From IMG/VR virus record IMGVR_UViG_3300042453_003743, positions 62,001 to 126,000 of that record: a stretch of DNA of 64,000 nt. The stretch is one strand, 5' to 3'. Below the pieces are notes generated by a model. The model was given only the letters and a program-made list of their open reading frames with translations, did not search any database and was not told the DNA's origin. Both the position numbers and the translations under genes were made by a program. The stretch comes from a virus. This document shows positions 21,861 through 34,308 of the stretch, piece by piece; the first letter of the stretch is position 1, and every line of letters begins with the position of its first letter.

Positions 21861-21935
21861 GGACCGGACAGAGAGGGGAGGGGTCGCATGACCCCTCCCC
21901 TTGACACTCGCACCACCATCGGATACAATACGCCC

Positions 21936-22118
21936 ATGAAGAACAGCACCACCGAACTCCGCTTCCTCTCCGCCATGCTCTGGCTCTCATCCTTCGCGGG
22001 CACCGCGCTCTGCGTGAACTGGGCGATGGATGGGCACTACCTCCTGTCCGCTTTCACAGGTCTACTGGTTCTGGGCTGCGGATGCCTGATCGCCCATGTT
22101 CACTACCTGCGGAAATAA
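21936..22118 (+). CDS. Small two-span membrane protein
   Basis: 60 residues from ATG 21936, 6 nt after TACAAT with TTGACA upstream (leaderless). Two hydrophobic segments (about residues 8-24 and 30-50). The 41-bp promoter-start region is almost the same as that of the next gene, showing recent duplication. An inner-membrane modifier of the host is possible. Confidence 0.6.
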   Translation: MKNSTTELRFLSAMLWLSSFAGTALCVNWAMDGHYLLSAFTGLLVLGCGCLIAHVHYLRK

Positions 22119-22168
22119 ATCTTCCGGCATCACTTGACACTCGCACCACCAACGGATACAATACACCC

Positions 22169-22447
22169 ATGAAGCGCACCACCACCAAAGACCTGATTGA
22201 TTCCATCCGCACCCTCAACCGCGAGTTGGGCTTCCCCGATGATGGAGGCACCGCCCTGGGCCTCGGTTCGATTCCCGGTTCGTTCTGCCTCTCGGGAGCC
22301 TACGGAGGCTGGCAGATTCAGCGATTCGTCGGACAGGGTTTGGAGTCCGTCACCACCGGATACCGCCCAAAGCGGCAAGTCCGGGAACTAGTAGAGGCAA
22401 TGGTGCAGGGTGTGCGCCTGCACCGCGCCTACCAGATGATCGCATAA
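22169..22447 (+). CDS. Hypothetical early protein
   Basis: 92 residues, leaderless (TACAAT, 6 nt, ATG). The middle is Gly-rich (SIPGSFCLSGAYGGWQIQRF) and the end helical. It is followed at the stop codon by the first copy of the three-hairpin module. No family recognised. Confidence 0.6.
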   Translation: MKRTTTKDLIDSIRTLNRELGFPDDGGTALGLGSIPGSFCLSGAYGGWQIQRFVGQGLESVTTGYRPKRQVRELVEAMVQGVRLHRAYQMIA

Positions 22448-22522
22448 CGAGGTGGTGCTCGTCAACCGAAGAGGCTAACGCCCTGCCCCGGATGTTCCGG
22501 GGCTAGGTTTTTTTATTGGCAG
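22445..22522 (+). ncRNA. Three-hairpin RNA module, copy 1
   Basis: Starts at the TAA stop: hairpin ACGAG-gtggtg-CTCGT, then a linker, hairpin AGGC-taac-GCCCT, then CCCCGGA-tgt-TCCGGGG with TTTTTTTATT. A second copy at 23840-23917 keeps all three stems with base changes on both arms. Directly followed by E6. Likely a structured 3' end or released small RNA. Confidence 0.6.
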
Positions 22523-22562
22523 TTGACACCTGCAAACGCCCGTGGTACAATCTACTTGGTTC
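22523..22562 (+). promoter_or_regulatory. Extended promoter element E6
   Basis: TTGACA-N17-TACAAT then CTACTTGGTTCA. Convergent with E7, 35 bp away. Confidence 0.65.
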
Positions 22563-22596
22563 ACAAATGTATTGTTATTCTCTTTTTCCCACAGCC

Positions 22597-22635
22597 GACC
22601 AAGTATATTCTACCATGAGGGTATTGCGGTGTCAA
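22597..22635 (-). promoter_or_regulatory. Extended promoter element E7
   Basis: Minus-strand TTGACA-N17-TAGAAT then ATACTTGGTCG. Faces E6; a GTTATCGGTCT near-copy of the AGTCCGATAAC motif follows at 22639-22649. Confidence 0.6.
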
Positions 22636-22713
22636 GTCGAGTTATCGGTCTGTGTATAACTTTGATTGTTGGGGTCACTTGACACCGTGGCGCGGGTGTG
22701 GTATCATCATTGC

Positions 22714-23277
22714 ATGAGCACCACTCACACCAACCGTTTCGAAACCGTTCGCACCCTTGCCATCGGCAACTTCATCAACCTACTGACCCGCGCCACGGAG
22801 GCCGATCACCAAGCCGCCAGCGCATGGTACAATGACGCGCAGGCGTTCGCTAACTCGCTCCGCCCCATCACCGGATGGAACCTTGAGGTGGCCGCTAGCG
22901 TCGTGTCAGCCTTCTCGCCCCGCGTCACTTGGGGCCACAACAAGGCGAAGGCGCTCCAGTATGCGCAGGGCATCACGCCGAAGGGGCTGGGCTCCCATGT
23001 CGCTGCGGCGGATCGCTGCGTGGCGGACGGGTTCAACGGGCTGCGCGGGCTCAAGACGAACGCATTCGCCCGTGCCATTGCCGGGGACACGCAGGCCGTC
23101 GTGGTGGATGTGTGGATGTGCCGTGCTGCGGGGCTCGGGAAGGACGCTCCGAACAAGACGGAATATCGGGCAATCGCGGACGCGATCCGCACCATCGCAT
23201 CCACGCGGGTCGTGAACATGGAACCCGCCACGCTTCAGGCTCTCCTGTGGATCATCATCCGGGGGAAGGCGGAGTAA
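22714..23277 (+). CDS. DUF7178-like phage protein
   Basis: 187 residues from ATG 22714, six nt after TATCAT (leaderless). AASVVSAFSPRVTWGHNKAKAL (key: A-x-x-V-x-A-F-S-P-R-x-x-W), GLKTNAFARAI and VVVDVWMCRAAGL match a phage family of unknown function, perhaps a helix-hairpin-helix/glycosylase-like helical fold. A larger relative is at 17036-18484. Being early and host-like in GC, this copy probably acts in the cytoplasm. Confidence 0.65.
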   Translation: MSTTHTNRFETVRTLAIGNFINLLTRATEADHQAASAWYNDAQAFANSLRPITGWNLEVAASVVSAFSPRVTWGHNKAKALQYAQGITPKGLGSHVAAADRCVADGFNGLRGLKTNAFARAIAGDTQAVVVDVWMCRAAGLGKDAPNKTEYRAIADAIRTIASTRVVNMEPATLQALLWIIIRGKAE

Positions 23278-23324
23278 TCCGCCACCCCCTTGACAGGCCG
23301 CACCCCATAGAGTATACTACACCC

Positions 23325-23570
23325 ATGACCAACACCACCACCGAAACCCCCATCGACTACAGAACCGACCCCCGTTACAAGTACGCCTTCGCATACGGAG
23401 TCCTCTCGCATTGCATGACCGTCGTTGCCGAACTGGTCGAACGGTCCAAGCGTGAGGGGGAGATGATCGACCCCAACAACCCGGACCTGAAGTGGGCCAT
23501 CACCCAGTTCAAGATCGCAGACGACAATCTCCACACAGACTCCCAGCACACAAGGTACAATACGCCATGA
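23325..23570 (+). CDS. Hypothetical early protein
   Basis: 81 residues from ATG 23325, 6 nt after TATACT (leaderless). Mostly helical (YGVLSHCMTVVAELVERSKRE). Its last codons contain TACAAT, the -10 of the next gene, and its TGA overlaps that gene's ATG. Confidence 0.6.
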   Translation: MTNTTTETPIDYRTDPRYKYAFAYGVLSHCMTVVAELVERSKREGEMIDPNNPDLKWAITQFKIADDNLHTDSQHTRYNTP

Positions 23571-23842
23571 GCACCACCAACTGGCACAAGCATTTCGGTT
23601 CCGCTATGGACTCGGATCGAACCGTGGAATGCGTTCAATGCGGTTCTTCCATGATCGGAGATGGCCCTGCACAGCCCGTCATCTGCACCGAATGCTACAA
23701 CCACTCGGGCATCATCCTGCGGGATCGGGTGATCTGCATGGAGTGTGCCTCTGAAGTTCTGGAACACGGAACGCTAGTCACCCCCGACACTCACCCCGAT
23801 GGGTTCACTTGCGCGGATTGTGGGGAAACTTCAACGATCTAA
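23567..23842 (+). CDS. Double zinc-ribbon-like protein
   Basis: 91 residues with four CxxC knuckles (CVQCG, CTECY, CMECA, CADCG), enough for two zinc sites. ATGA overlap with the upstream gene, and also TACAAT 5 nt before its ATG, so it may be made from both a coupled and a leaderless message. Followed at its stop by copy 2 of the three-hairpin module. Confidence 0.65.
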   Translation: MSTTNWHKHFGSAMDSDRTVECVQCGSSMIGDGPAQPVICTECYNHSGIILRDRVICMECASEVLEHGTLVTPDTHPDGFTCADCGETSTI

Positions 23843-23917
23843 CGAGGTGGTGCTCGTCAACCGAAAAGGATTCGTCCCTGCCCCGATTCGTTCGGGGCTA
23901 GGTTTTTTTATTGGCAC
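23840..23917 (+). ncRNA. Three-hairpin RNA module, copy 2
   Basis: Same plan as 22445: ACGAG-gtggtg-CTCGT, AGGA-ttcg-TCCCT, CCCCGA-ttcgt-TCGGGG and TTTTTTTATT. The second hairpin shows a paired change relative to copy 1 (C-G to A-T), which supports selection on RNA structure. Confidence 0.6.
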
Positions 23918-23957
23918 TTGACATCGGACAGGATGTATGGTAGAATCTACTTGGTGA
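23918..23957 (+). promoter_or_regulatory. Extended promoter element E8
   Basis: TTGACA-N17-TAGAAT then CTACTTGGTGAA, about 70 nt upstream of the leaderless promoter for 24029. Confidence 0.65.
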
Positions 23958-24028
23958 ACAAAACAAAAATGATTTCTCTCATCACGCACCCCCTTGACAC
24001 CCGTGGCCGTTCGTGATACAATGGGTCC

Positions 24029-24394
24029 ATGACACCACTCAACCACATCCCCAACCGAACCGATTCCTGCATCATGCTCATCGAGTCCATCCGCATGGCT
24101 CACTCCGACCTCTCATGCACGAAGGCCAACCCGGAAGAAACCAATGCGGCCCTCGCTTTCTGCGAGATCGCCGTCAGCATCCCCCCGTCGTGGTTCACGC
24201 ATGAGGAGCGCATCATGGTCAAGGAAACCATCGACACGCTCTACGGTGACGCTCTGAAGTTCATCATCGACCTCGACGGAGGACACGTTTCCTTCATCAA
24301 CAAGTGCAACAACCTCTGCCACGGGCGTTCGTTGGAGTCGTTCGTGGATGTGATGATGCGGCAGCACATGGCGGAGTTTGGATCGGTAGCCTGA
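24029..24394 (+). CDS. Hypothetical early helical protein
   Basis: 121 residues, leaderless (TACAAT, 6 nt, ATG; TTGACA upstream). Helical with several Cys/His and a DLDGGHVSF stretch. No family recognised. Confidence 0.6.
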   Translation: MTPLNHIPNRTDSCIMLIESIRMAHSDLSCTKANPEETNAALAFCEIAVSIPPSWFTHEERIMVKETIDTLYGDALKFIIDLDGGHVSFINKCNNLCHGRSLESFVDVMMRQHMAEFGSVA

Positions 24395-24401
24395 AGGTGA
24401 A

Positions 24402-24433
24402 GTCCACCCCCCGGCCAACGCCGGGGGGTGGAC
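24402..24433 (+). terminator. Perfect 13-bp GC-rich hairpin
   Basis: GTCCACCCCCCGG-ccaacg-CCGGGGGGTGGAC, 8 nt after the stop. No T tract follows, so it could be a stabilising 3' end or a processing structure rather than a classical terminator. Confidence 0.6.
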
Positions 24434-24470
24434 GGATAGTAGTCACTACTGATAGTAGACCCCCGATAAT
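24434..24470 (+). repeat. GATAGTAG repeat cluster
   Basis: GGATAGTAGT and CTGATAGTAG flank an ACTACT inverted copy. Similar clusters occur at 27252, 31351 and 35870. Confidence 0.5.
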
Positions 24471-24490
24471 ATTTCAATAATATTTGGGAC

Positions 24491-24531
24491 TTGACACGCC
24501 GGGATGGTCATGATACAATCGTCTTGGACGA
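24491..24531 (+). promoter_or_regulatory. Extended promoter element E9
   Basis: TTGACA-N17-TACAAT then CGTCTTGGACGA, a divergent member; an AGTCCGATAA copy follows at 24544-24553. Confidence 0.55.
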
Positions 24532-24610
24532 CATTCAAAACAGAGTCCGATAATAAAAAAGATGGACGAGATGGCTTGACACGGACGGGGTGGCATGGTA
24601 GAATGCCAAC

Positions 24611-24841
24611 ATGAACAACCCCAACAACTACAACGACGACGACGCTGAATACTCCGACCTCATGCCCTACGACGATGCGTTCACCGACGAGGACTTCGTT
24701 CAGGAACTCATTGACGAGGGATACAGCGAGGATGAGGCCCGCCGCATGGTTGGCGAGTACGACGCCAACGAATACTACGGCATTGACGAGGACAACGACC
24801 GGGATGTTCCCGACTTCGTTGACGATGGAGACTTCGAATGA
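24611..24841 (+). CDS. Extremely acidic small protein (DNA-mimic candidate)
   Basis: 76 residues with about 29 Asp/Glu, 3 Arg and no Lys. A short helical pair (QELIDEGYSEDEARRMV) in the middle resembles a UBA-like turn. Leaderless (TAGAAT, 6 nt, ATG). Small acidic early phage proteins often mimic DNA to block host nucleases or regulators; that is an inference from charge only. The ATG of the next gene overlaps its stop. Confidence 0.65.
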   Translation: MNNPNNYNDDDAEYSDLMPYDDAFTDEDFVQELIDEGYSEDEARRMVGEYDANEYYGIDEDNDRDVPDFVDDGDFE

Positions 24842-25212
24842 ATGTAAGAATCATTCGGAGCGACAGGCCGACCACCAGCAAAAGGTGGGTCAAAAGACGA
24901 ATCAACGAAACCCTTCGGGGAATCTTCTTTGCATCAGCCGTCATCAGCACGAAGGACTCTGGAAAGAGTTGTAATGGAATGTCAGTAGACATTCACCCTT
25001 TCCCGACCGGAACGATCATTTTCGATGTCCAACTGGGAACGGACTGGACCCGAAAGGGAGTTGAAGCATTCTTGCGCTACATGGAGCAGTCGAACGGTGT
25101 AGTGAGCGTGACCTTGACAACCACAACCGACTCTGATACAATCCACCCATGCGAAAGCCACCCAACCACCGACCCGACCGACCGACCACTTGCGACTTCA
25201 GCGACTTGCTGA
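24838..25212 (+). CDS. Hypothetical basic protein coupled to acidic protein
   Basis: 124 residues, Arg/Lys-rich at the N-terminus (RPTTSKRWVKRRINETLRG) with a strand-helix core. The ATGA overlap couples it to the acidic protein, so an acid-base pair is possible. Its last 20 codons double as the promoter of the next gene and overlap it by 64 bp, so the C-terminal tail is probably not important. Confidence 0.5.
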   Translation: MNVRIIRSDRPTTSKRWVKRRINETLRGIFFASAVISTKDSGKSCNGMSVDIHPFPTGTIIFDVQLGTDWTRKGVEAFLRYMEQSNGVVSVTLTTTTDSDTIHPCESHPTTDPTDRPLATSATC

Positions 25213-25391
25213 ACGAGGTCGCCAAGTTCACCGAAACCAACCCCCTGTGGTTTGAGAACCCGGAGGACTTGGCGCGAATGGCAAGAGCCTACGGCATCAT
25301 CACGATGATGAGTGGACCGGATTCATGCACGGAGGATGAGTGCGAATACATCCTCAACCTTCACCGCACCCTTCAGGAGAACCACAAGTGA
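25149..25391 (+). CDS. Hypothetical early protein
   Basis: 80 residues, leaderless (TACAAT, 6 nt, ATG). Acidic C-terminal half (SCTEDECEYILNLHRTLQ). The promoter lies inside the previous ORF. Coupled to the next gene by GTGA. Confidence 0.6.
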   Translation: MRKPPNHRPDRPTTCDFSDLLNEVAKFTETNPLWFENPEDLARMARAYGIITMMSGPDSCTEDECEYILNLHRTLQENHK

Positions 25392-25756
25392 ACCCCACCA
25401 ACAAGTTTGACGGATTCTTCAGCGGGAACGGAGAAATCCCGCAGAATGTGGAGATGCGACCCCCCACGGTGCCGATGATGGTTCACACCCTCATCGTCCT
25501 GACCGGAACCACGCCGGAGTGGTACAAGAACGAGAAGAACCGCATCATTGCCTGCTCGTTCTTGGAGGCCATTGCCGATGGGGTCAAGGAGTTCAGGGAC
25601 GGGAAGGAGAAGGATTCTCCGATCTCCCTCTCCGAAGCCGCGTTCCTGATGATGACCTCCGAGATTCTGTTCGCCACGCAGCAGTTCGCCTCCGACGAGG
25701 AGCGCGAGCGTTGGCCTGACCGACCGGACACCGTGAGCGACGAGGACGAGGAGTGA
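25388..25756 (+). CDS. Hypothetical early protein (GTG start)
   Basis: 122 residues. GTG at 25388 is chosen because it overlaps the stop of the upstream gene (GTGA) and AGGAG lies 8 nt upstream. Helical with an acidic end (SDEDEE). No family recognised. Confidence 0.6.
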   Translation: MNPTNKFDGFFSGNGEIPQNVEMRPPTVPMMVHTLIVLTGTTPEWYKNEKNRIIACSFLEAIADGVKEFRDGKEKDSPISLSEAAFLMMTSEILFATQQFASDEERERWPDRPDTVSDEDEE

Positions 25757-25757
25757 C

Positions 25758-25785
25758 TTGACAACCCGCGCCCATCGGGTACAAT
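25758..25785 (+). promoter_or_regulatory. tRNA-Lys promoter
   Basis: TTGACA-N16-TACAAT ends 9 nt before the tRNA. Confidence 0.7.
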
Positions 25786-25794
25786 GGGCATCCC

Positions 25795-25867
25795 GCCTCT
25801 GTAGCGCAGTTGGTAGCGCAGTTGACTTTTAATCAATTGGTCGTGGGTTCGAACCCCACCGGAGGCA
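25795..25867 (+). tRNA. tRNA-Lys (TTT)
   Basis: Full cloverleaf: acceptor GCCTCTG/CGGAGGC, anticodon loop CTTTTAA, T arm GTGGG-TTCGAAC-CCCAC. CCA not encoded. The next ATG is only 2 nt after the discriminator base. Confidence 0.9.
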
Positions 25868-25869
25868 TT

Positions 25870-26136
25870 ATGAAAGACAACGAAATCCTAATTCACGCAC
25901 TCACGGAGTCAGACAAACTGCAAATAATTTTTGCAGAACTCATGGAGTTTTGGTTGGAGGGAAAGGAACCTCCCACTTGGTTGGTTGATCAGTACTACGA
26001 CCAACTGGAAGAAGTTCAGGTGGCTTTCAGCGCCGACAAGTTGCATGAGGTCGTGGCGCAGAAGAACCGAGACTTCTACGACGACCTTCAAAATAAACTT
26101 GAAGGCTTGCTTGACAACACCCCGGACTTGTTCTAG
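25870..26136 (+). CDS. Small acidic protein directly after tRNA-Lys
   Basis: 88 residues, acidic and helical. The ATG begins 2 nt after tRNA-Lys, so tRNA 3' cleavage would yield a near-leaderless message. There is no other ribosome-binding site. Its 3' end contains the TTGACA/TAGAAT promoter of tRNA-Leu. Function unknown. Confidence 0.65.
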   Translation: MKDNEILIHALTESDKLQIIFAELMEFWLEGKEPPTWLVDQYYDQLEEVQVAFSADKLHEVVAQKNRDFYDDLQNKLEGLLDNTPDLF

Positions 26137-26147
26137 AATGGGGTCAC

Positions 26148-26220
26148 GGCACGGTAGACCAACGGCAGAGTCAATTGACTCAAAATCAATAAAGTGTGGG
26201 TTCGAATCCCACCCGTGCTA
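26148..26220 (+). tRNA. tRNA-Leu (CAA), short variable loop
   Basis: Acceptor GGCACGG/CCGTGCT, anticodon arm ATTGA-CTCAAAA-TCAAT, T arm GTGGG-TTCGAAT-CCCAC. The variable loop is 5 nt (AAAGT) rather than the long arm usual for bacterial tRNA-Leu. Own promoter at 26111-26139. Confidence 0.8.
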
Positions 26221-26325
26221 CTAAAATAGAGGCGGATCTTCTTCAAGACCGTCCAAGTTGAGAAGGTGAAAGTCTGACGAGTCCGATTCTTTGTAATCGT
26301 AGTGCAGTAAAGTAGCCTTCGACTT
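26221..26325 (+). other. Spacer between tRNA-Leu and tRNA-Arg
   Basis: No ORF. A near-copy of the AGTCCGATAA motif occurs at 26279-26288. Possible pairing of AAGTTGA with TCGACTT would enclose the middle, but no tRNA-like T arm exists. Confidence 0.4.
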
Positions 26326-26399
26326 GTTCCCGTAGCCCAGTTGGATAGAGCAGCCGCCTTCTAAGCGGCAGGTCGCTGGTTCGAATCCAGCCGGGAACG
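26326..26399 (+). tRNA. tRNA-Arg (TCT)
   Basis: Perfect acceptor GTTCCCG/CGGGAAC, anticodon loop CTTCTAA, T arm TCGCTGG-TTCGAAT-CCAGC. Reads AGA. Confidence 0.9.
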
Positions 26400-26435
26400 C
26401 TTGACAAGAAAGGAAACGGTGCTACAATGCTGTAC

Positions 26436-26462
26436 ATGAACACCCCAAAGAGTATATTATAA
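26436..26462 (+). CDS. Eight-residue leader peptide candidate
   Basis: TTGACA-N16-TACAAT, 7 nt, then ATG with the frame MNTPKSIL and TAA. The promoter-start layout is the same as for real island genes, but the frame closes after 8 codons, one being ATA, decoded by the tRNA-Ile encoded just downstream. It could be an attenuator-like leader or an accidental start for the tRNA transcript. Confidence 0.4.
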   Translation: MNTPKSIL

Positions 26463-26468
26463 GTTTTG

Positions 26469-26527
26469 GCGGTGGTTCAAACAAACCGCATAGAGGCAAC
26501 CTACGGTTGCACGGTTCGCAGAGCCGT
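26469..26527 (+). ncRNA. Three tandem hairpins before tRNA-Ile
   Basis: GCGGT...ACCGC (26469-26489), GCAACC-tac-GGTTGC (26496-26510) and ACGGTTC-gca-GAGCCGT (26511-26527) lie back to back between the eight-codon frame and the tRNA. They may be a processed leader or a small RNA. Confidence 0.5.
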
Positions 26528-26541
26528 ACAACTCTGCATAC

Positions 26542-26617
26542 GGAAGGGTGGCTGAATCGTAGTTAGAGCGCATGCCTTATAAGCGTGAATATGTGGGTGC
26601 AACTCCCGCCCCTTCCA
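26542..26617 (+). tRNA. tRNA-Ile (TAT)
   Basis: Acceptor GGAAGGG/CCCTTCC, anticodon loop CTTATAA, T arm GTGGG-TGCAACT-CCCGC (unusual T loop). Reads ATA, a rare codon in GC-rich bacteria. Confidence 0.8.
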
Positions 26618-26640
26618 CTTCCCCCAACCAAAGGAACGAG

Positions 26641-26847
26641 ATGGATCTCAACAAGATCAGAGAGTGCTTGACAACGTTGGAAGACTTCGCCGCCATTCTT
26701 GATGATGGCATGGCTCCTGTCACGCAGGAGGAGATCGAAATCATGGCAGAGGAACTTCCCAAGATCATCTCCACTCTCAAGAAGGAAACCGATGTCAGCA
26801 CGGGCACCGATATGTACGTCAAGTACAGCGGCTTCTGTGACGGCTAA
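26641..26847 (+). CDS. Small acidic helical protein
   Basis: 68 residues from ATG 26641 with AAGGAAC upstream, 23 nt after tRNA-Ile. Acidic helices (TTLEDFAAIL, EEIEIMAEELPKI). Cotranscribed with the tRNA. No family recognised. Confidence 0.6.
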   Translation: MDLNKIRECLTTLEDFAAILDDGMAPVTQEEIEIMAEELPKIISTLKKETDVSTGTDMYVKYSGFCDG

Positions 26848-26898
26848 AAGTTTTTGTTTTTTGCTTGACAACCCCCAACCACAAGGTACAATAGACAC

Positions 26899-27180
26899 AT
26901 GAACTTCGACTTCAACAACATCGCCCTGATCGCCCTCTCGCTCTTTGCCGGATACTTCGGCCTCGCCTACATGAAGGCCCGCTTTGAGGACAGGATGCGC
27001 GCCTACACGCAGCGCATGGATGATCTTCAGACTTGGTTCGACCGTGAGAACGAGCGCATCATGGATCGGATTCGGACTCTTGATGTCCGCGTGAATGATC
27101 TCCGTTTCAACTACGAGACTCACGCCGAATGCAAGAGCAAGTACCCGGCGGAGAAGAACTACTACAACACGGAAGTCTAA
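26899..27180 (+). CDS. Membrane-anchored coiled-coil protein
   Basis: 93 residues, leaderless (TACAAT, 6 nt, ATG). One hydrophobic segment at residues 8-26 followed by a long charged coiled coil. Topology resembles small phage membrane anchors. A terminator follows at 27206-27242. Confidence 0.6.
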   Translation: MNFDFNNIALIALSLFAGYFGLAYMKARFEDRMRAYTQRMDDLQTWFDRENERIMDRIRTLDVRVNDLRFNYETHAECKSKYPAEKNYYNTEV

Positions 27181-27205
27181 ATCCGCTCTAGACTTCCTCT
27201 CATAC

Positions 27206-27242
27206 CAGAGAGCCCCGCAATGGGCTCTCTGTTTTTATTTTG
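27206..27242 (+). terminator. Intrinsic terminator
   Basis: CAGAGAGCCC-cgcaat-GGGCTCTCTG then TTTTTATTTT. Confidence 0.85.
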
Positions 27243-27251
27243 ACAGTAATC

Positions 27252-27290
27252 TACTGATAGTAGTTTTGGATCGGATAGTAGTCCGATAAC
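27252..27290 (+). repeat. GATAGTAG cluster and AGTCCGATAAC copy
   Basis: CTGATAGTAGT, CGGATAGTAGT and then AGTCCGATAAC (27280-27290) immediately upstream of E10. Confidence 0.5.
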
Positions 27291-27305
27291 TAGGCGGCAC
27301 TCGGC

Positions 27306-27346
27306 TTGACAAGTGGAAGGTGATGTGGTACAATCATATTGGTGGA
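27306..27346 (+). promoter_or_regulatory. Extended promoter element E10
   Basis: TTGACA-N17-TACAAT then CATATTGGTGGA, upstream of the leaderless promoter of the MoxR gene. Confidence 0.6.
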
Positions 27347-27423
27347 CAATATAAAAATGGATATTTCAAAATATTTGCGATAGGGTACTTGACACCCCAA
27401 AAAGATTGTGGTACAATGTTCGC

Positions 27424-28695
27424 ATGAACAGCAACATCGACCGCCGCAAGCAGAAGTTCCTCAAGGCTCTCACCGACCTGTACGGAGTCCCATCCTCCAT
27501 CGGTGAGGCACGGTACACCCGTGAGCAGTGCATCAACGCCTTCCACAACACTTACAAGGTGTCGCCCAACGACAACTACAGCACCCTCCCGGCTTGGATC
27601 GTGCAAGACAAGTCCCGTCGCCTTGGCCGGGGACTCTACAACATTCCCGAAACGGTTGTCCTGACCGACGCCATCGAACCCGAAAATGTTTACGAAACTT
27701 CAGGACAGGATTTGACACCACAGGAAACTTGTGGTAGAATGGAAACCATGAACAGCAGCAACTACAACCTCGTCATGCCGTCCAACGATGTTTCCCTCGT
27801 CCCCGTCAAGAACGAAACTTTCGTTCCGTGGGGACACTACGAGGACATCAATGCCATCCTCGCCTCCAAGCAGTTCGCTCCGGTCTACATCACGGGTCTG
27901 TCGGGCAACGGCAAGACCACGATGATCGAACAGGTCTGCGCGAACACCGGACGGGAGTGCATCCGTGTCAACATCACCGCCGAAACCGACGAGGATGACC
28001 TGATCGGTGGGTTCCGCCTCATCAACGGCGAAACCAAGTTCGTGTTCGGTGGAGTCGTGCAGGCCATGCAGCGTGGCGCAATCCTCCTGTTGGACGAGAT
28101 CGACTTGGGAACGGAGCGCATGATGTGCCTTCAGCCCGTGCTTGAGGGCAAGGGTGTCTACATCAAGAAGATCGGAATGTTCGTCAAGCCCGCTCCCGGC
28201 TTCAATGTGGTCGCCACCGCCAACACGAAGGGCAAGGGCGAGTCTGATCGGTTCGTCGGCACCCGCTGCATGAACGAGGCGTTCCTTGACCGCTTCTCCT
28301 ACTGGTTTGAGCAGGAGTACGCTGATAGGGTGGTGGAGGCCCGCATCATCATCCGCAAGATGAAGGCGTATGGCAAGGAGGACAAGGACTTCGCGCAGTA
28401 CCTCGTCAAGTGGGCGGAAACGATCCGCTTGGGCTTCAAGGAGGGCGGCTTGGATGACATCATCACGACCCGTCGCTTGGAGGAGGTCTGCAAGGCGTTC
28501 GCCATCTTCAACGACAAGGAGAAGGCGATCAAGTTGACTCTCACCCGGTTCGACCCGGCTACGCAGGAGGCGTTCTACAACCTCTACACCAAGATCGACC
28601 CGACCATCCTTCCGCCTGTGGACGGGATGGACAAGGAGAAGCAGGCCGTTCCCGCTCCCTCCCCGTCTGACACCAACTACGCAATCAACGCCTAA
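27424..28695 (+). CDS. MoxR/CobS-like AAA+ ATPase with N-terminal targeting domain
   Basis: 423 residues from ATG 27424, six nt after TACAAT (leaderless). Residues 1-75 form a small domain repeated in the 74-residue protein at 28713. The ATPase core follows: Walker A GLSGNGKTTM (about residue 160), Walker B AILLLDEIDLG, sensor-1 VVATANTKGKG and an arginine-finger segment DRFSYWF. Cyanophage CobS-like proteins are the closest known group. MoxR ATPases usually work with VWA proteins such as the one encoded at 29012 to remodel complexes. An internal promoter and start at 27748 can give a short form lacking the first domain. Confidence 0.8.
   Translation: MNSNIDRRKQKFLKALTDLYGVPSSIGEARYTREQCINAFHNTYKVSPNDNYSTLPAWIVQDKSRRLGRGLYNIPETVVLTDAIEPENVYETSGQDLTPQETCGRMETMNSSNYNLVMPSNDVSLVPVKNETFVPWGHYEDINAILASKQFAPVYITGLSGNGKTTMIEQVCANTGRECIRVNITAETDEDDLIGGFRLINGETKFVFGGVVQAMQRGAILLLDEIDLGTERMMCLQPVLEGKGVYIKKIGMFVKPAPGFNVVATANTKGKGESDRFVGTRCMNEAFLDRFSYWFEQEYADRVVEARIIIRKMKAYGKEDKDFAQYLVKWAETIRLGFKEGGLDDIITTRRLEEVCKAFAIFNDKEKAIKLTLTRFDPATQEAFYNLYTKIDPTILPPVDGMDKEKQAVPAPSPSDTNYAINA
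27712..27748 (+). promoter_or_regulatory. Internal promoter inside MoxR gene
   Basis: TTGACA-N17-TAGAAT, 7 nt, then in-frame ATG 27748 at codon 109. It has the exact layout of the other leaderless starts and would produce a 315-residue ATPase without its N-terminal domain. Confidence 0.6.
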
Positions 28696-28712
28696 CAAAA
28701 AGGAAAAAGAAA

Positions 28713-28937
28713 ATGCCTTACATGAACAAGCGCAATCGTTTCGTCGCAGCCGCCAAGCAGTACGCGGATGCCAACCTCAACGGCGACTACAGCAACTTCA
28801 AGAAGTCTGACCTCCTCACGGTCGCACAGTCGATCAACATGAAGGGGACTCCGACTTGGGTTGTCAAGGAGTACGCAAGCGCGGTGAGCCGTGGCGTCTA
28901 CGACCTGACGAGCCTGATCGCTCCTGTGACTGTCTGA
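28713..28937 (+). CDS. Stand-alone paralog of the MoxR N-terminal domain
   Basis: 74 residues with AAGGAAAAAG before the ATG, 17 nt after the MoxR stop. It matches MoxR residues 1-75: an R-K/N-R-F-x-x-A start, then TPTWVVKEYASAVSRGVYDL against LPAWIVQDKSRRLGRGLYNI. It may compete with or replace the targeting domain of the ATPase. It lies between the ATPase and VWA genes and is probably part of the same complex. Confidence 0.65.
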   Translation: MPYMNKRNRFVAAAKQYADANLNGDYSNFKKSDLLTVAQSINMKGTPTWVVKEYASAVSRGVYDLTSLIAPVTV

Positions 28938-29011
28938 TGCTGTTCTGATGTGGGGTGGGGCAATCGGCCCCACCCCTTGACAAGACGCACCACCTGTGGT
29001 AGAATACCGAC

Positions 29012-31252
29012 ATGAACACTTCTCTCTCCATCTTCGCCCGCGCTCTCGCAACCGAAAACCTCTCGTTCTCGTTCGATGCCAACGCAGACACCGCATCGTT
29101 CGACACCAAGAGCCGTCACCTCGTCATGCCCGTGTGGGATGTCTCCGACACCCTTCAGACCATGCTTGTCGCCCATGAGATCAGCCACGCCCTGTGGACT
29201 CCCCATGAGCGCAGTCAGGAGTTGCTGACGCAGGCGGAGAAGGACGGCTACTGCATCAAACTCCTCCACCACATTGCGAATGTCATTGAGGATGTCCGCA
29301 TTGAGAAGTTGATGAAGGCCAAGTACCCCGGCACCCGCAGAGACTTCTTCTTGGGCTACAAGGAGATCGTGGATGCCGACCTGTTCAAGTTCAAGTCGAT
29401 GGACTTGAAGAACACCAACATCATCAACCGACTCAACCTCCACTTCAAGTGGGGTGTCCCCGGCTTCCTGCCCATCGACCTCAACGCGGACGAGAACGAG
29501 ATCGCCATGTTGGTCGATGCCGTTCAGACCTTCGATCAGGGGTTTGAGTTGGCAAAGCACCTCTACAAGCATCCTTCCATGAAGGATATGCGCGAGAAGT
29601 ACGAGGCGCAGGCTGAAAAGCAGAAGAAGTCCTCCGGCACGGACGGGGATCAGGATGATGACGGCACGATGTCGCAGACTGATCTTTCGGACAGCAATCT
29701 TGGCATGGTCGATATGCCCTGTGAGTTCGGTCGCAAGAACGGCGAGAAGTTCCACGCCACGACCCTGACCATCAGCCCGGTGGTCAAGATCGAAAACAAC
29801 ATCATCACCACCGACGAGATGCTTGAGTCCTACGAGGACGCGATCATCGGAAACCCGTATGGGAATCCCACGCTTGACTTGACCAACTACCGCTCCTTCG
29901 TCAAGGAGTCCGATGCGTTCGTTCGCCAGTTGGTCGCGCAGTTTGAGCGTCGCAAGGCTGCGGACGAGATTCGCCGTGAGCGGCCCAAGCAGACCGGGAT
30001 GCTGAACCTTGACCGCCTCCACCAGTTCCGCACCCACGATGACATCTTCCTGTCCAAGATCATCAAGCAGGACGGCAAGAATCACGGCATCGTGTTCTTG
30101 ATCGACTTCTCCGGGTCTATGACCACCGTGCTTGACCATTGCATCCTTCAGGTGTTCCAGTTGGTTTGGTTCTGCGAGAAGGCCAAGATTCCGTTTGAGG
30201 TGTTCGGCTTCACCAACATGAACCTGATCGGCAACCGTGGCAAGGAGGAGGATGAGCGGCACCGCAAGTTCTGCCGCCAACACTCCATTGAGGAGCGGTA
30301 TGTTCCGCTGTACCCCACCGAAACGCAGAACCCTCGCCCGGACAGCATTGTGTGCGGCAACACCCGGCTCATTTCGTTGGCTTCGTCGGCTGATTCGCCT
30401 GCCAAGCGTGAGCGTCTGCTTGCCTTTATCTACGAGTCCTCCGTGCAGCGTACTCGCAGTCAGGTGTTCTCGCTTGGTGGTACTCCGACCGTGGAGGCCA
30501 TGATCCTCACCACTCAATACATGAAGAAGTGGGTGCAGGACAACAATGTGCAGATTCCGACCCTGATGCTCGTCACCGATGGACAGCCCAACGGTGTCTC
30601 GTTGGACCCGACCTCGCCCATGTATTCGGATGTGCCGTATCAGATTCGGGAGAATATGTCCCTCATGGTCCGCAACGACATCCTTCAGACCATGACCCGC
30701 ATCGACAACAAGGAACACGACGGCATGGGCTTGGGCAATGTGGTGGTGTCCGTGATGCTTGATGATCTTCGTCAGACGATGAACGCGAGGACTGTCGGTA
30801 TGTATGTGGGTGGTCGCACCTTCAACGATTCGCTCTACCGTGGCTTCTGCCTTCTGCCGCAAGACCATGAGCAGATGGACAGGATCATTGAGCAGGCACG
30901 AAAGAATGGAGATTGGAGAGCGACGATAAGCCTCCGCGAAAGCCCCCGCTACGAGATGGCTCAACAGCAGTACATGAGTGAGGGGTGCATCATCCTCCCC
31001 ACCGTGAGCAACCCCGGCTACGATGCCTTCTTCCTCATCAAGACTCCCAAGATCGTCAAGGACGAGGAGGCGATTGTGGAGAGCGGAACCTTCGTCAAGG
31101 TGAAGAACACCTTCGTCAAGACGATGGGCAAGAGAGCCGGGAGCCGTGTGTTCCTCTCCAAGTATGTTGACATCGTGGCGGGTCAGCCTGTGCCAAAGAA
31201 CGGGGGCAAGTTGTACGACCTCCCCGCCCACAACGGACTTGAAAGAAAGTAA
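29012..31252 (+). CDS. VWA protein with N-terminal HExxH motif (CobT-like partner of MoxR)
   Basis: 746 residues, leaderless (TAGAAT, 6 nt, ATG). An AHEISHALWTP zinc-site motif is near residue 55, a basic/acidic linker near 200-240, and the VWA domain begins near residue 365 with VFLIDFSGSM (MIDAS D-x-S-x-S), GGTP and TLMLVTDGQ. Cobaltochelatase CobT-like and cyanophage peptidase/VWA proteins have this plan. With the ATPase it probably forms a metal-dependent remodelling or proteolytic machine directed at a host complex. The target is unknown. Confidence 0.8.
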   Translation: MNTSLSIFARALATENLSFSFDANADTASFDTKSRHLVMPVWDVSDTLQTMLVAHEISHALWTPHERSQELLTQAEKDGYCIKLLHHIANVIEDVRIEKLMKAKYPGTRRDFFLGYKEIVDADLFKFKSMDLKNTNIINRLNLHFKWGVPGFLPIDLNADENEIAMLVDAVQTFDQGFELAKHLYKHPSMKDMREKYEAQAEKQKKSSGTDGDQDDDGTMSQTDLSDSNLGMVDMPCEFGRKNGEKFHATTLTISPVVKIENNIITTDEMLESYEDAIIGNPYGNPTLDLTNYRSFVKESDAFVRQLVAQFERRKAADEIRRERPKQTGMLNLDRLHQFRTHDDIFLSKIIKQDGKNHGIVFLIDFSGSMTTVLDHCILQVFQLVWFCEKAKIPFEVFGFTNMNLIGNRGKEEDERHRKFCRQHSIEERYVPLYPTETQNPRPDSIVCGNTRLISLASSADSPAKRERLLAFIYESSVQRTRSQVFSLGGTPTVEAMILTTQYMKKWVQDNNVQIPTLMLVTDGQPNGVSLDPTSPMYSDVPYQIRENMSLMVRNDILQTMTRIDNKEHDGMGLGNVVVSVMLDDLRQTMNARTVGMYVGGRTFNDSLYRGFCLLPQDHEQMDRIIEQARKNGDWRATISLRESPRYEMAQQQYMSEGCIILPTVSNPGYDAFFLIKTPKIVKDEEAIVESGTFVKVKNTFVKTMGKRAGSRVFLSKYVDIVAGQPVPKNGGKLYDLPAHNGLERK

Positions 31253-31267
31253 GTAATATTAGGTACG

Positions 31268-31310
31268 CCCCCACCAGGAAGGAGAGAGCCTGGTGGGGGT
31301 TTTCTTTTGT
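31268..31310 (+). terminator. Strong intrinsic terminator
   Basis: CCCCCACCAGG-aaggagagag-CCTGGTGGGGG then TTTTCTTTT ends the MoxR/VWA unit. Confidence 0.9.
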
Positions 31311-31349
31311 CAAGAACAAAAATTATTATTTCCAGAAAATAATAATTTT

Positions 31350-31387
31350 GATAGTAGTACTGATAGTACTCGGATCGGATAGTAGTT
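31350..31387 (+). repeat. GATAGTAG repeat cluster
   Basis: Two TGATAGTA(G/C) units plus CGGATAGTAGTTAT; also seen at 24434 and 27252. Confidence 0.5.
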
Positions 31388-31395
31388 ATTTGGAC

Positions 31396-31435
31396 GCACC
31401 AAGTATATTGTACCATGCCGGATTCCCGGTGTCAA
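31396..31435 (-). promoter_or_regulatory. Extended promoter element E11
   Basis: Minus-strand TTGACA-N17-TACAAT then ATACTTGGTGC. It points back at the terminator; no minus-strand gene follows. Divergent with E12. Confidence 0.6.
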
Positions 31436-31466
31436 GCCCCCCTGTTATCGTCTTATCGGACTCCCC

Positions 31467-31508
31467 TTGACAAACTTCCGACCCCGTGGTACAATCGTAT
31501 TGGTGGAC
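31467..31508 (+). promoter_or_regulatory. Extended promoter element E12
   Basis: TTGACA-N17-TACAAT then CGTATTGGTGGA. TTATCGGACT at 31453-31462 and GTTATCGGACT at 31560-31570 flank it. Confidence 0.6.
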
Positions 31509-31624
31509 AAAATAATTGAATAGTTTATCAGACTTAGAACACAGGCCGGTGCTCAGAGGGTTATCGGACTTGTATTCAATTGCTTGACAACCCCTATATC
31601 TGGTGTATAGTTACCAGACTGTTC

Positions 31625-31879
31625 ATGCGACTGATAACCCCCCAGCCCCCTGTGAGTACTGATCGTTATGGGGCGGGGGGTTATCGGGCGTTATTCTACC
31701 TGATTATTACCGGTCTGTCCCTCCTGGTTATATACTGGGCGGTTATCGGACTTGGAAAAATTATTCAGAATAATAACGGACAGGATTCAGAGGGACAGGA
31801 TCCAGGAAAGACGGCTCACTACTATCAGGGCGGGGTCCTCCAGATGCTCAGATACGCCAGGTCCCTCCCCACAGATTAA
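31625..31879 (+). CDS. Small single-span membrane protein
   Basis: 84 residues; TTGACA-N16-TATAGT about 13 nt before the ATG. One hydrophobic segment (residues about 24-45, LFYLIITGLSLLVIYWAVIGL). The 3' half of the coding region contains two GGACAGGAT units of the repeat array, so the C-terminal half may not be under strong selection. Confidence 0.5.
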   Translation: MRLITPQPPVSTDRYGAGGYRALFYLIITGLSLLVIYWAVIGLGKIIQNNNGQDSEGQDPGKTAHYYQGGVLQMLRYARSLPTD

Positions 31880-31955
31880 AAATAATAATTTCCGGACAGG
31901 ATTGAAACGGACATCCAGGAAACACCTGGACAGGATTCAAATTGTCGGACAGGAT
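31778..31955 (+). repeat. GGACAGGAT repeat array
   Basis: Five exact GGACAGGAT copies at 31778, 31793, 31894, 31928 and 31947, irregularly spaced; a further copy is at 19172 by the other island border. Possible protein-binding iterons. Confidence 0.55.
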
Positions 31956-32206
31956 TGAGAAATTGTTAAAATTTCTCAAAATTTGTCAAATTTCTTTGAA
32001 AATTTGTAATTATTTGCTTGACAGCCTATAATGCCCTATAAGGCGTCGGTTTAAAAGAGGGCTCGGAGGGGTCTTTAAGGACTTGGAGGGGCTTGGAGGG
32101 CATTGTAAGACGATTAAAGGGGTGTTAGAGGGTGGGTCTGTAACTCCAAATTTCTCAAATATTCTTCAATATTCTTTACCCCACTCACTCCCACTCTCCC
32201 CCACCT
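31956..32206. other. Noncoding, strand-biased junction
   Basis: No ORF. It holds an AT-rich stretch, a TTGACA/TATAAT-like region (32019-32033), then a purine-rich run with repeated GGAGGG(G) units, then a C-rich tract. The base asymmetry would favour R-loops or an origin-like function, but this is not proven. Confidence 0.35.
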
Positions 32207-32644
32207 TTACCCCTCATTGACAGGCTCAATATTCTCCATATCAGCCTTATCAATAACATAGGCTGGTATGGTTTTCTTTCCTTCTATTGAGTGTGCTTTC
32301 TTTATTCTATTCAACCCGTCTGTAATCGAAATAGTACCGTCTTCCTGCCTTATGCCCAATACGGGTACGCTGGTATCAGCCTTTTCCATTCTTTTCTTGT
32401 GTTGAGGATTATCCATGTCATATTGCTTGTCCCACCATTCCAAAGCGTCTGTTTCTTTGATGGGCAAATCTTTTACGAAAAATTCTTTCTTTGATTTGGC
32501 GAAATCGTAGATGTCCTTGACTCGGTACTTCTTCCCAGTCTCGTCATTGGTGGCGATTTGTTGATCCCAATTTTCTACCTGTCCCTTCTTGGGCGTGTCG
32601 AGGTAGGGGTCATAATTTTCTAAAAATTGTTTGAAATTTTTCAT
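32207..32644 (-). CDS. ParB-like nuclease-fold protein with capsid-targeting N-terminus
   Basis: 145 residues starting MKNFKQFLEN, close to the T4 capsid-targeting peptide. The C-terminal part (VPVLGIRQEDGTISITDGLNRIKKAHSIEG, key residues D-G-x-x-R-x-x-x-A) resembles the ParB/sulfiredoxin N-terminal fold. Its ATG overlaps the methyltransferase stop, so both are made together and probably packaged together. DNA cleavage or NTP binding is a family-based guess. Confidence 0.55.
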   Translation of the reverse strand: MKNFKQFLENYDPYLDTPKKGQVENWDQQIATNDETGKKYRVKDIYDFAKSKKEFFVKDLPIKETDALEWWDKQYDMDNPQHKKRMEKADTSVPVLGIRQEDGTISITDGLNRIKKAHSIEGKKTIPAYVIDKADMENIEPVNEG

Positions 32645-33186
32645 TCTTTGGTTCCGTGTATGATTCCATGTTCGATTCTGGCATTTGGGAAAACTTTTCT
32701 GACTTCTGGTAGATGGGCTGCGGTAGTCATGTTGTTCTGCCATGAATCTTTCTTTGTTTGCTTGCCCTGACCTGTTCTATCCCCTTCGTAAATGGAAATA
32801 AAGATTCTTCCACCGGGCTTGAGGGTTGAGTGTGCGGTTTTCAGGGCTTCGTGTCTGTATTCGGGTTCCTTGATGACATTCAGCACATTGAACAGAGATG
32901 CGCTGTCTGCCCCTTCCTTACCCACTTCCTGCATGACCTTCGTATTGTGTTCTTCCGGGCGGTTGAAGGGATCAAAGACATGAGCCTTGACTCCCAATTT
33001 TTCTAAAAATTCCACGGCGTTGTCAAACTTTCCGCCTCCGATGTCAATGTGCGTAGTGTCGGGCTTCCATCCCATTTTTCTGTGTATGGTGGTGTAGGCT
33101 TCGGGGAGTTTGGTCTTGTTGATGCTGGTTGCGGCAGAGGTGAACTCTTGGGCATCCTCAACAAGGAAATTTTTGAAACTTTTCAT
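32641..33186 (-). CDS. SAM methyltransferase with capsid-targeting N-terminus
   Basis: 181 residues from ATG 33186; the longer frame to 33456 is antisense to another gene and rejected. Starts MKSFKNFLVEDA, then a class I methyltransferase: THIDIGGGKFDN (motif I, SAM binding, about residue 45), HVFDPFN, ASLFNVLNVIKE and LKPGGRIFISIYEGDR. CATAAATA late promoter 6 nt upstream. A packaged methyltransferase could be injected with DNA to modify a host or phage target. Confidence 0.7.
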   Translation of the reverse strand: MKSFKNFLVEDAQEFTSAATSINKTKLPEAYTTIHRKMGWKPDTTHIDIGGGKFDNAVEFLEKLGVKAHVFDPFNRPEEHNTKVMQEVGKEGADSASLFNVLNVIKEPEYRHEALKTAHSTLKPGGRIFISIYEGDRTGQGKQTKKDSWQNNMTTAAHLPEVRKVFPNARIEHGIIHGTKE

Positions 33187-33191
33187 CAATC

Positions 33192-33199
33192 TATTTATG
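33192..33199 (-). promoter_or_regulatory. T4-like late promoter CATAAATA
   Basis: Minus strand, 5 nt upstream of the methyltransferase ATG. It almost abuts the divergent leaderless early promoter of 33244. Confidence 0.6.
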
Positions 33200-33243
33200 A
33201 GTCGAATGCTTGACACTCTTGGGTAATGGGGTATAGTTAACCC

Positions 33244-33516
33244 ATGCGAAACGAAAAGACTACCGCTGGGAACAAGGCCGCACAGGAGTTTCTGAAGGAT
33301 CAGAGCATCGCTGACCTCAAGGCCGAGATCATTCGTCTGAATGACAAGATTCATGCCATGCGCTCCGTTTTGTGGGAGTGGAATGTCTCGTCCGGGCCTG
33401 TGTGGGAATATTGGAAGTTGGCAAAGGTTGGAGAAACCGCCGAGGACTATTCCCATTGGACCGAGGACTATTTTGATTCTGACGACGACATCCCCCTTCC
33501 CCCCGAACAGGAGTAA
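33244..33516 (+). CDS. Hypothetical early protein
   Basis: 90 residues, leaderless (TTGACA, TATAGT, 6 nt, ATG). Helical N-terminal half, then Trp-rich WEWNVSSGPVWEYWKLA and an acidic tail. Promoter class places it with the early island. Function unknown. Confidence 0.65.
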   Translation: MRNEKTTAGNKAAQEFLKDQSIADLKAEIIRLNDKIHAMRSVLWEWNVSSGPVWEYWKLAKVGETAEDYSHWTEDYFDSDDDIPLPPEQE

Positions 33517-33518
33517 AC

Positions 33519-33704
33519 ATGACTACCAAAATGAAAAAGAAAAAGACTACACCCGTAAAGACTCTTAAACTTTTCCCCGAGGCTGGTGTGTTGGGTCTGC
33601 TGACCGACGTTGCCATCACCTCCATGATGCTTGGCGTTGCGTTCATGATGCTTCTGCTTTGCTTGCAGATGGCCGAGAAAGTAACCATCACCTTTGGAAA
33701 GTAA
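33519..33704 (+). CDS. Small membrane protein
   Basis: 61 residues with a Lys-rich N-terminus and one hydrophobic span (about residues 23-48, LGLLTDVAITSMMLGVAFMMLLL). Starts 2 nt after the previous stop. A holin-like or membrane-modifying role is possible; not shown. Confidence 0.55.
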   Translation: MTTKMKKKKTTPVKTLKLFPEAGVLGLLTDVAITSMMLGVAFMMLLLCLQMAEKVTITFGK

Positions 33705-33709
33705 ATCAC

Positions 33710-34123
33710 ATGAACAAGACAATCGCTACCAAATGGGTCAAGGCTCTTCGTTCAGGAAAGTATAAACAAGGTGACAATTATCTTTGTCAGATCAGCAGCA
33801 AGGGCATAAAGCACTGCTGCTTGGGTGTGCTGACGGAGATTTATCAGACCGAGCAGATAGCAAAGAAGAAAAAGACTCTTCCGGCAAAAATTGTCAAGAT
33901 GTATAAGAATGCCCCATTCGATGTCGTAAAGTATGGCAATGGCAAGAGTTCTGCCGAGGAACTTCCCCTCGCTGTTCAGCGTTGGGCTGACATGGATGGC
34001 AGACTTGGAGAGTTTGATGATGAAGGTGCTGGCGACTTTGGAAGCCTGTCACACATGAATGATGCTGGCTACTCGTTCAAGAAAATTGCCAACTTCATCG
34101 AAAAGAACTACGAGAATCTTTAA
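33710..34123 (+). CDS. Conserved CCLGV-family phage protein
   Basis: 137 residues from ATG 33710. W-x-x-A-L-R-S-G-K-Y-K-Q-G and HCCLGVLTEIY are the signature of a very common phage protein of unknown function (often beginning W..AL.SG.Y.Q). The C-terminal half is helical. Part of a run of small plus-strand genes with short spacings. Confidence 0.7.
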   Translation: MNKTIATKWVKALRSGKYKQGDNYLCQISSKGIKHCCLGVLTEIYQTEQIAKKKKTLPAKIVKMYKNAPFDVVKYGNGKSSAEELPLAVQRWADMDGRLGEFDDEGAGDFGSLSHMNDAGYSFKKIANFIEKNYENL

Positions 34124-34125
34124 AC

Positions 34126-34302
34126 ATGGCTACCAAGACTAAAAAGACTCCTACCTCGCTCACCGACCGTTTGGACAACATGATCGAAAAAATTTCTGAT
34201 CTTGCGATTGAAGTGAGTGATGGTGAACTCAGCCCCAATGAGGTCTATGACCAGTTGGACAATATTTGCAGCGATCTTAAGAAGATGAGGGATTTTCTAT
34301 AA
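34126..34302 (+). CDS. Small helical protein
   Basis: 58 residues: basic N-terminus MATKTKKTP then acidic helix LDNMIEKISDLAIEVSDGELS. Starts 2 nt after the previous stop. Likely a real small gene; function unknown. Confidence 0.55.
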   Translation: MATKTKKTPTSLTDRLDNMIEKISDLAIEVSDGELSPNEVYDQLDNICSDLKKMRDFL

Positions 34303-34308
34303 AATATC

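What the first reader, a model, noticed from the sequence alone, without database searches (positions are those of the whole stretch)
27424..28937. Internal promoter and start splits a MoxR ATPase into long and short forms, with a separate paralog of the removed domain
TTGACA-N17-TAGAAT and an in-frame ATG (27748) inside the gene would give an ATPase lacking its first 108 residues. The same domain is encoded alone at 28713. So the phage may make the ATPase with and without a targeting domain, plus a free domain that could compete.
Basis: partly seen in the sequence, partly recalled or inferred. Interest (0 to 1): 0.7.

Follow-up and report, generated by a model that had tools for sequence, protein, structure and literature searches.

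The report
Phage ATPase made long and short
A virus of bacteria carries a second promoter and start codon inside its MoxR-type ATPase gene, kept in all 18 related viruses whose linker could be read, so it very probably makes the machine both with and without its front domain, and next door it encodes a free relative of that front domain.

Summary
The ATPase ORF 27424-28695 (423 aa) contains TTGACA-N17-TAGAAT (27712-27740), then an in-frame ATG (27748) 7 nt downstream, giving a 315-aa form without the first 108 residues. In the sequenced record, TTGAC promoters have ATG 6 nt after the -10 in 18 cases against 1.2 expected: a leaderless promoter class, to which the internal site belongs. Synonymous shuffling of the genome's genes gives 0.02 such internal sites. 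All 18 contigs with an intact linker, the window included, keep TAnnnT exactly 7 nt before the internal ATG; TTGAC persists in 10 of 14 distinct linkers, once in a shifted reading frame. The internal start region is the best conserved 9-codon stretch of the gene at third codon positions. The 74-aa protein at 28713 is a remote paralogue of the N-domain (20.3 bits against at most 9.3 in 4,800 shuffles). In a sister clade the ATPase exists only in the short form, beside this protein; in 87 other MoxR loci neither the free domain nor the internal promoter was found. Two ATPase forms plus a free domain is thus well supported. 'Targeting' and 'competition' are untested.

The parts
27206..27231 (+). 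intrinsic terminator upstream of the unit
   Evidence: 10-pair stem plus T run
27306..27334 (+). upstream promoter of a second class (-10 followed by CATATTGGTGGAC, no start codon placed for leaderless initiation)
   Evidence: similar copies elsewhere in 19-32 kb
27389..27417 (+). promoter of the long form, TTGACA-N17-TACAAT, ATG 6 nt after the -10
   Evidence: a leaderless-type -10 is also present before the long-form start of relatives
27424..28695 (+). long MoxR/CobS-like AAA+ ATPase, 423 aa
   Evidence: AAA_5 1.4e-18, phrog_249 8.6e-96, cobaltochelatase CobS chain 4e-26
27424..27660 (+). N-domain of the long form (residues 1-79; motif LPAW[IL]xQ...RR.GRGxYxIPE)
   Evidence: alignment of 13 relatives; no Pfam match
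27712..27740 (+). internal promoter TTGACA-N17-TAGAAT inside codons 97-106
27748..28695 (+). short ATPase, 315 aa, internal leaderless-type start (MNSSNYNL)
   Evidence: in-frame ATG 7 nt after the -10 kept in 18 of 18 contigs with intact linker; the windows starting at codons 108 and 109 are the best conserved 9-codon windows at third positions
27895..27918 (+). P-loop GLSGNGKT, present in both forms
   Evidence: sequence
28696..28712 (+). 17-nt gap with a Shine-Dalgarno-like AAGGA: the 74-aa gene is led by a ribosome site, not by its own leaderless promoter, so both ATPase transcripts could carry it
   Evidence: sequence; co-transcription is inference
28713..28937 (+). free 74-aa paralogue of the N-domain
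28977..29005 (+). own leaderless promoter of the next gene, ATG 6 nt after the -10
29012..31252 (+). partner: peptidase-type protein (HEISH zinc motif) of the CobT/vWA kind, 746 aa
   Evidence: phrog_459 peptidase 1.2e-117, phrog_5298 cobalamin biosynthesis protein 5e-6; HExxH seen in the translation; phage homologues

Best explanation
One gene, two leaderless messages. The phage's MoxR/CobS-like AAA+ ATPase is transcribed from a promoter just before codon 1 (long form, N-domain plus ATPase) and from a second promoter encoded in the linker codons, whose transcript would begin at or one base before the internal ATG (short form, ATPase only). Both messages would run on into a small gene, led by a ribosome site, that encodes a free paralogue of the N-domain. 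A peptidase-vWA type partner follows from its own leaderless promoter. Most likely the ring-shaped ATPase is assembled from long and short subunits, so the number of N-domains per ring is set by promoter use, and the free domain either docks on the ATPase or its partner in trans as an adaptor or takes the cis domain's binding site. Shown by sequence and comparison: the internal promoter/start unit, its conservation, its membership in a leaderless class, the paralogy, and the co-occurrence of free domain with short form. Inferred: that both messages and proteins exist in infected cells, mixed rings, and the role of the free domain. The substrate is unknown; virion assembly chaperone is the published proposal for phage MoxR-vWA pairs.
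For: 1) ATG lies 6 nt after the -10 in 18 of 70 TTGAC promoters of the sequenced record, 1.2 expected per offset; TAnnnT about 10-12 bp before the start marks leaderless genes in bacteria (PMC3160421). 2) All 18 contigs with an intact linker (14 distinct sequences) keep TAnnnT exactly 7 nt before the internal ATG; a 19th, cut off upstream, keeps it too. 3) The -35 TTGAC persists in 10 of 14, and in L023 it is kept although a local shift puts it in another reading frame (LDIP instead of LTxP), so DNA, not protein, is conserved. 4) Codon 104, whose third base is the first T of the -10, ends in T in 13 of 13 although it encodes G, V, D or A; only 2 of 403 columns are invariant T, the other being an all-Phe column. 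5) The windows beginning at codons 108 and 109 rank first and second of 414 for third-position identity. 6) Internal full sites are nearly absent from synonymous shuffles (0.02). 7) L022, L042, L043 and L044 encode only the short ATPase plus the free domain; the tree makes them sister to the dual-form clade (100/99), and both together are one group (100/100) against loci with no free domain. 8) Experimental precedent for the mechanism: Shigella VirF21, a short protein from an internal leaderless message (PMC5101355).
Against: No transcript or protein data. Three of 14 linkers have a weakened -35 (GTGACT, CTGACT, TTGAAA) and one (L010) has none, so those would depend on the extended -10. The peptides in the linker (DTI, DTM) already favour a -10 by themselves: per-sequence synonymous probabilities for -10 plus -35 are mostly 3-17%, not tiny, and the sequences share ancestry. 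The co-occurrence of free domain and short form rests on one clade with two sister states, hence few independent events. Mixed rings and the free domain's role are inference.
Confidence: 0.75

Rival explanations
1. Fusion relic: the ATPase once had its own leaderless promoter and start, an N-domain gene became fused in frame upstream, and the old start is only a remnant or is now the minor product.
For: The sister clade has ATPase genes that begin close to the internal start; both starts share ATGAACAGCA.
Against: More distant MoxR homologues, including pelagiphages, already carry a fused N-domain without the promoter, so fusion is probably older; and a remnant would not keep exact -10/ATG spacing and top-ranking third-position conservation. 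It concerns origin more than present function, and can be true together with the best explanation.
Confidence: 0.15
2. The internal promoter serves mainly to express the downstream 74-aa gene (and perhaps the partner gene), and the short ATPase is a by-product.
For: The 74-aa gene has a Shine-Dalgarno-like site and no promoter of its own.
Against: The partner gene has its own leaderless promoter; the ATG would not have to stay in frame, at a fixed 7 nt, with a conserved MNSxxYNL start; the sister clade keeps the short ATPase as the only form.
Confidence: 0.1
3. Chance promoter-like string made by linker codons and codon bias; only the long form is made.
For: Linker residues such as LT and DT[IM] resemble TTGAC and TACAAT by coding; per-sequence probabilities are moderate.
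Against: Genome-wide 0.02 expected; 18 of 18 contigs conserved with changing amino acids and one reading-frame shift; short-only relatives exist.
Confidence: 0.05
4. The free 74-aa protein is not a partner or competitor of the ATPase but an independent small (perhaps winged-helix, DNA-binding) regulator that happens to share the fold.
For: Identity to the N-domain is only about 23%, hhalign is weak, and one PHROG match at E = 0.025 is to a terminase small subunit family.
Against: It lies directly behind the ATPase gene in all relatives that reach it, is strongly conserved (28 invariant positions), and was found only beside ATPases that are, or are predicted to be, made without their N-domain.
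Confidence: 0.25

Closest known systems
Phage MoxR AAA+ ATPase with peptidase-vWA partner (CobS/CobT-like, 'porphyrin biosynthesis'/'peptidase' in cyanophages and pelagiphages; jumbo phage pair of PMC7824862)
   Same: Same ATPase family (phrog_249), same adjacent peptidase-type partner with HExxH
   Different: None of the 87 other MoxR loci examined had the internal leaderless promoter or a neighbouring free domain; gene order here is ATPase - free domain - peptidase, whereas Kyanoviridae have peptidase - ATPase
Shigella VirF30/VirF21 (PMC5101355)
   Same: Short protein from a leaderless message of a gene-internal promoter, in frame with the long one
   Different: Transcription factor of a bacterium, unrelated protein; experimentally shown there, only predicted here
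ClpB and ClpB-deltaN (PMC6168691)
   Same: An AAA+ ring ATPase made with and without its N-domain from one gene
   Different: ClpB uses an internal translation start; here a separate leaderless promoter is predicted; different AAA+ family; no free N-domain paralogue in the abstract read
Mycobacterial ClpC2, a partial homologue of ClpC1 (PMC10030653)
   Same: A partial homologue of an AAA+ chaperone encoded separately, which binds the same ligand (abstract)
   Different: Different family; the phage protein is encoded next to the ATPase and is far more diverged from it

Membership tests
MoxR/CobS AAA+ ATPases | AAA_5-type P-loop ATPase domain related to CobS/NorQ/CbbQ | tested here: met
   AAA_5 1.4e-18; CobS chains 4e-26, NorQ 3e-11, CbbQ 2e-10
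MoxR-vWA chaperone pair of phages | Adjacent vWA partner fused to an N-terminal metallopeptidase domain | tested here: inconclusive
   Adjacent 746-aa gene with HEISH near the N-terminus, phrog_459 peptidase 1.2e-117 and a CobT-like match; no Pfam vWA hit
Cobaltochelatase CobS (cobalamin synthesis) | Works with CobN and CobT in cobalt insertion | not tested
   CobS-like ATPase and CobT-like partner only; no CobN was looked for, and the N-domain has no Pfam match. Cobalamin function is not claimed
Leaderless genes (TA-led, TAnnnT class) | -10 box about 10-12 bp before the start codon and no Shine-Dalgarno sequence | tested here: met
   -10 first base 13 nt before ATG 27748 and 12 nt before ATG 27424; no SD at either start; class enriched 18 against 1.2
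Leaderless genes (TA-led, TAnnnT class) | Mapped transcript 5' end at the start codon | not testable with these tools
   No RNA data
AAA+ ATPases with dual N-domain forms (ClpB type) | Both forms present in cells | not testable with these tools
   No proteomics; short-only relatives L022, L042-L044 show that the short form alone occurs in related phages
Winged-helix fold of the N-domain and of the 74-aa protein | Three-helix plus wing fold | not tested

The most novel reading that the evidence does not exclude
A phage AAA+ machine whose number of adaptor domains per ring is tuned by two leaderless promoters in one gene, together with a free copy of the adaptor domain that loads or displaces in trans: a three-component adaptor-dosage switch kept across a phage lineage.
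Probability: 0.35. Interest if true: 0.72.

Novelty: new variant of a known kind. Interest (0 to 1): 0.6.

Why it matters
Phage genomes are annotated with one protein per frame. Here the DNA-level conservation shows that a widespread phage ATPase family (638 phage records match it) has a lineage that very probably makes two forms from one frame through leaderless messages, plus a free paralogue of the removed domain. It gives a natural three-part system (long, short, free domain) with a sister lineage that has no long form, so the open question what phage 'CobS/CobT' proteins do, and what their N-domain adds, becomes directly testable. It also shows how far leaderless initiation is used in this phage group.

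Tried and rejected
The N-domain profile against solved structures gave nothing (best E 0.35). The 74-aa protein has no significant relative in the annotated phage collection. Profile-profile comparison by hhalign of two shallow alignments was weak and was supplemented by shuffle-calibrated profile scores. A first promoter pattern with the wrong spacer missed the site. Per-sequence codon resampling gives only moderate probabilities; column-wise comparison was more telling. Chimeric contig considered because of the GC jump and rejected: seven relatives link this region with the same ribonucleotide reductase gene on one contig. Another large gene used as a linkage marker matched no relative. Other copies of the domain in this phage: none found. 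Host: the reductase matches many actinophages, but its best hit is a Rhizobium phage, and the tmRNA is of the permuted kind; unresolved.

Full report
What is there. The window is bases 62001-126000 of a 137 kb virus record. The ATPase ORF starts at ATG 27424 (ORF listing extends it to a TTG at 27406) and ends at 28695. Residues 154-291 match AAA_5, the protein matches phrog_249 (8.6e-96; residues 118-393), and the nearest solved small chains are cobaltochelatase CobS, NorQ and CbbQ. Residues 1-79 have no Pfam match. The next gene (28713-28937, 74 aa) follows after 17 nt with an AAGGA ribosome-site-like stretch. Then comes a 746-aa peptidase/CobT-like protein with an HEISH motif (29012-31252; phrog_459 1.2e-117), led by its own promoter at 28977-29005.

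The internal promoter belongs to a class. Listing every TTGAC-N16..18-TAnnnT in the record gives 70 sites; an ATG starts exactly 6 nt after the -10 in 18 (1.2 expected per offset) and 7 nt after it in 3. This is the layout of leaderless genes in bacteria (PMC3160421). The long form's start (27389-27417, ATG 27424) and the partner's start (28977-29005, ATG 29012) have offset 6; the internal one (27712-27740, ATG 27748) has offset 7. Neither ATPase start has a Shine-Dalgarno sequence. In 124 kb of coding sequence there are two in-frame internal sites of this kind: this one, and 22134, where the longer ORF call is probably only an upstream start. Synonymous shuffles of the same genes give 0.02.

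Conservation. Relatives with 72-83% identical ATPases, and some found through the neighbouring gene, all carry the internal unit. Counting contigs once, 18 have an intact linker (window, L001-L008, L010-L012, L019, L023, L026, L027, L121, L139), and all 18 have TAnnnT exactly 7 nt before an in-frame ATG that opens M[NS]S..[FY]NL; L009, cut off at its 5' side, has it too. The linker upstream varies in length and sequence. The -35 reads TTGAC in 10 of 14 distinct linkers; L008, L121 and L139 have weakened forms, and L010/L012 have none. In L023 the TTGACA is kept while its reading frame is shifted (codons CTT GAC ATT instead of TTG ACx), which separates selection on DNA from selection on peptide. 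Codon 104 ends in T, the first base of the -10, in 13 of 13 sequences although it encodes G, V, D or A; in the 403 filled columns only one other is invariant T, an all-Phe column, and C-ending codons dominate in these genes. The 9-codon windows starting at codons 108 and 109, the internal start and its A/C-rich continuation, rank first and second of 414 for third-position identity, above any stretch of the AAA+ core. Per-sequence codon resampling is less impressive (3-17% for most), because the linker peptides themselves lean towards such a string; the strength lies in the pattern across sequences, with shared ancestry as a caveat.

The free domain. BLASTP of residues 1-110 with the 74-aa protein gives E = 3e-5, 23% identity over 70 aa. 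A profile of long-form N-domains, distant ones included, scores the 74-aa family at up to 20.3 bits (median 12.2), with a maximum of 9.3 in 4,800 shuffled sequences, and finds the 74-aa protein as the only other significant hit in the record (E = 9e-4). The shared core is P-x-W-[ILV] ... [RK]G-x-Y. The two shallow alignments compared by hhalign gave P = 0.007 only, so I call it a remote paralogue.

Who has what. Among the ATPase loci fetched, three sets appear. (i) Long ATPase with internal unit and free domain: the window's clade. (ii) Short ATPase only, with free domain: L022, L042, L043, L044; their ATPases begin close to the internal start position. (iii) 87 other MoxR loci, a few cut off at a contig end: most have an N-terminal extension, in many with a detectable N-domain, no free domain in the flanks fetched, and no -35/-10/ATG unit; four (three near-identical) have a chance -10 at another place. 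A maximum-likelihood tree of the ATPase core makes (i) and (ii) sister clades (100/99 and 99/97), together one group (100/100) apart from (iii). So the free domain was found only where the ATPase is, or is predicted to be, made without its N-domain. That is the best argument that the three parts belong together; but it amounts to very few independent events, and absence in (iii) is limited to the few kilobases of flank fetched.

Mechanism. A short protein from a gene-internal leaderless message has an experimentally shown precedent in VirF30/VirF21 (PMC5101355), and AAA+ rings with and without N-domains from one gene in ClpB (PMC6168691). A MoxR-vWA pair with an N-terminal metallopeptidase on the vWA partner is described for jumbo phages and proposed to act in virion assembly, by analogy with an archaeal virus (PMC7824862). 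I therefore infer a chaperone-like ring whose N-domain content is set by promoter choice, with a free domain acting in trans. What the domain binds, and whether the free one helps or competes, cannot be told from sequence.

Verdict. It is a new variant of a known kind: phage MoxR-peptidase/vWA system with a built-in second leaderless start and a free N-domain.

Noticed in passing
window 19300-31500, e.g. 20413, 21293, 22523, 23918, 24491, 27306, 31467 (+) and 19333, 20885, 22635, 31435 (-): A second promoter class: TTGACA-N17/18-TAnnAT followed directly by nnACTTGGTnGAC (or nnATTGGTGGAC), about a dozen copies, not placed for leaderless starts and often standing just upstream of a leaderless promoter. 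Function unknown (shared 5' leader or operator?).
   Followed up: partly
window 18000-37000: Island of about 40-60% G+C (mostly above 50% from 20 to 32 kb) in a record otherwise near 35%; it holds nearly all these promoters, many of the tRNA genes and the ATPase unit. Not a chimera: relatives link the unit to the same reductase gene.
   Followed up: partly
window 39335-39613 (-): Permuted tmRNA, Rfam RF04321, 81.8 bits, carried by a phage; ARAGORN reads the tag as ANIKAAPMRMAA.
   Followed up: no
window 22445-22528 and 23840-23923: An 84-nt repeat (86% identical) of terminator plus the beginning of a promoter, like a cassette boundary copied between genes.
   Followed up: no
window 21900-21956, 22133-22189, 23289-23345, 25113-25169: 57-nt repeats that span promoter, leaderless ATG and an ACC-rich beginning of the coding sequence; start regions of leaderless genes look alike (ATG followed by A/C-rich codons) across different genes.
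   Followed up: partly
L042:4473-4760, L044:4470-4760: Diverged, longer version of the free domain protein (MPYVNKRNRYIAAAK...) beside a short-only ATPase.
   Followed up: partly
window 60901-62790 (-): Ribonucleotide reductase (phrog_367); some homologues are annotated as adenosylcobalamin-dependent, and most records matched are actinophages. A possibly B12-dependent enzyme in the same genome as a CobS-like ATPase may or may not be coincidence.
   Followed up: no
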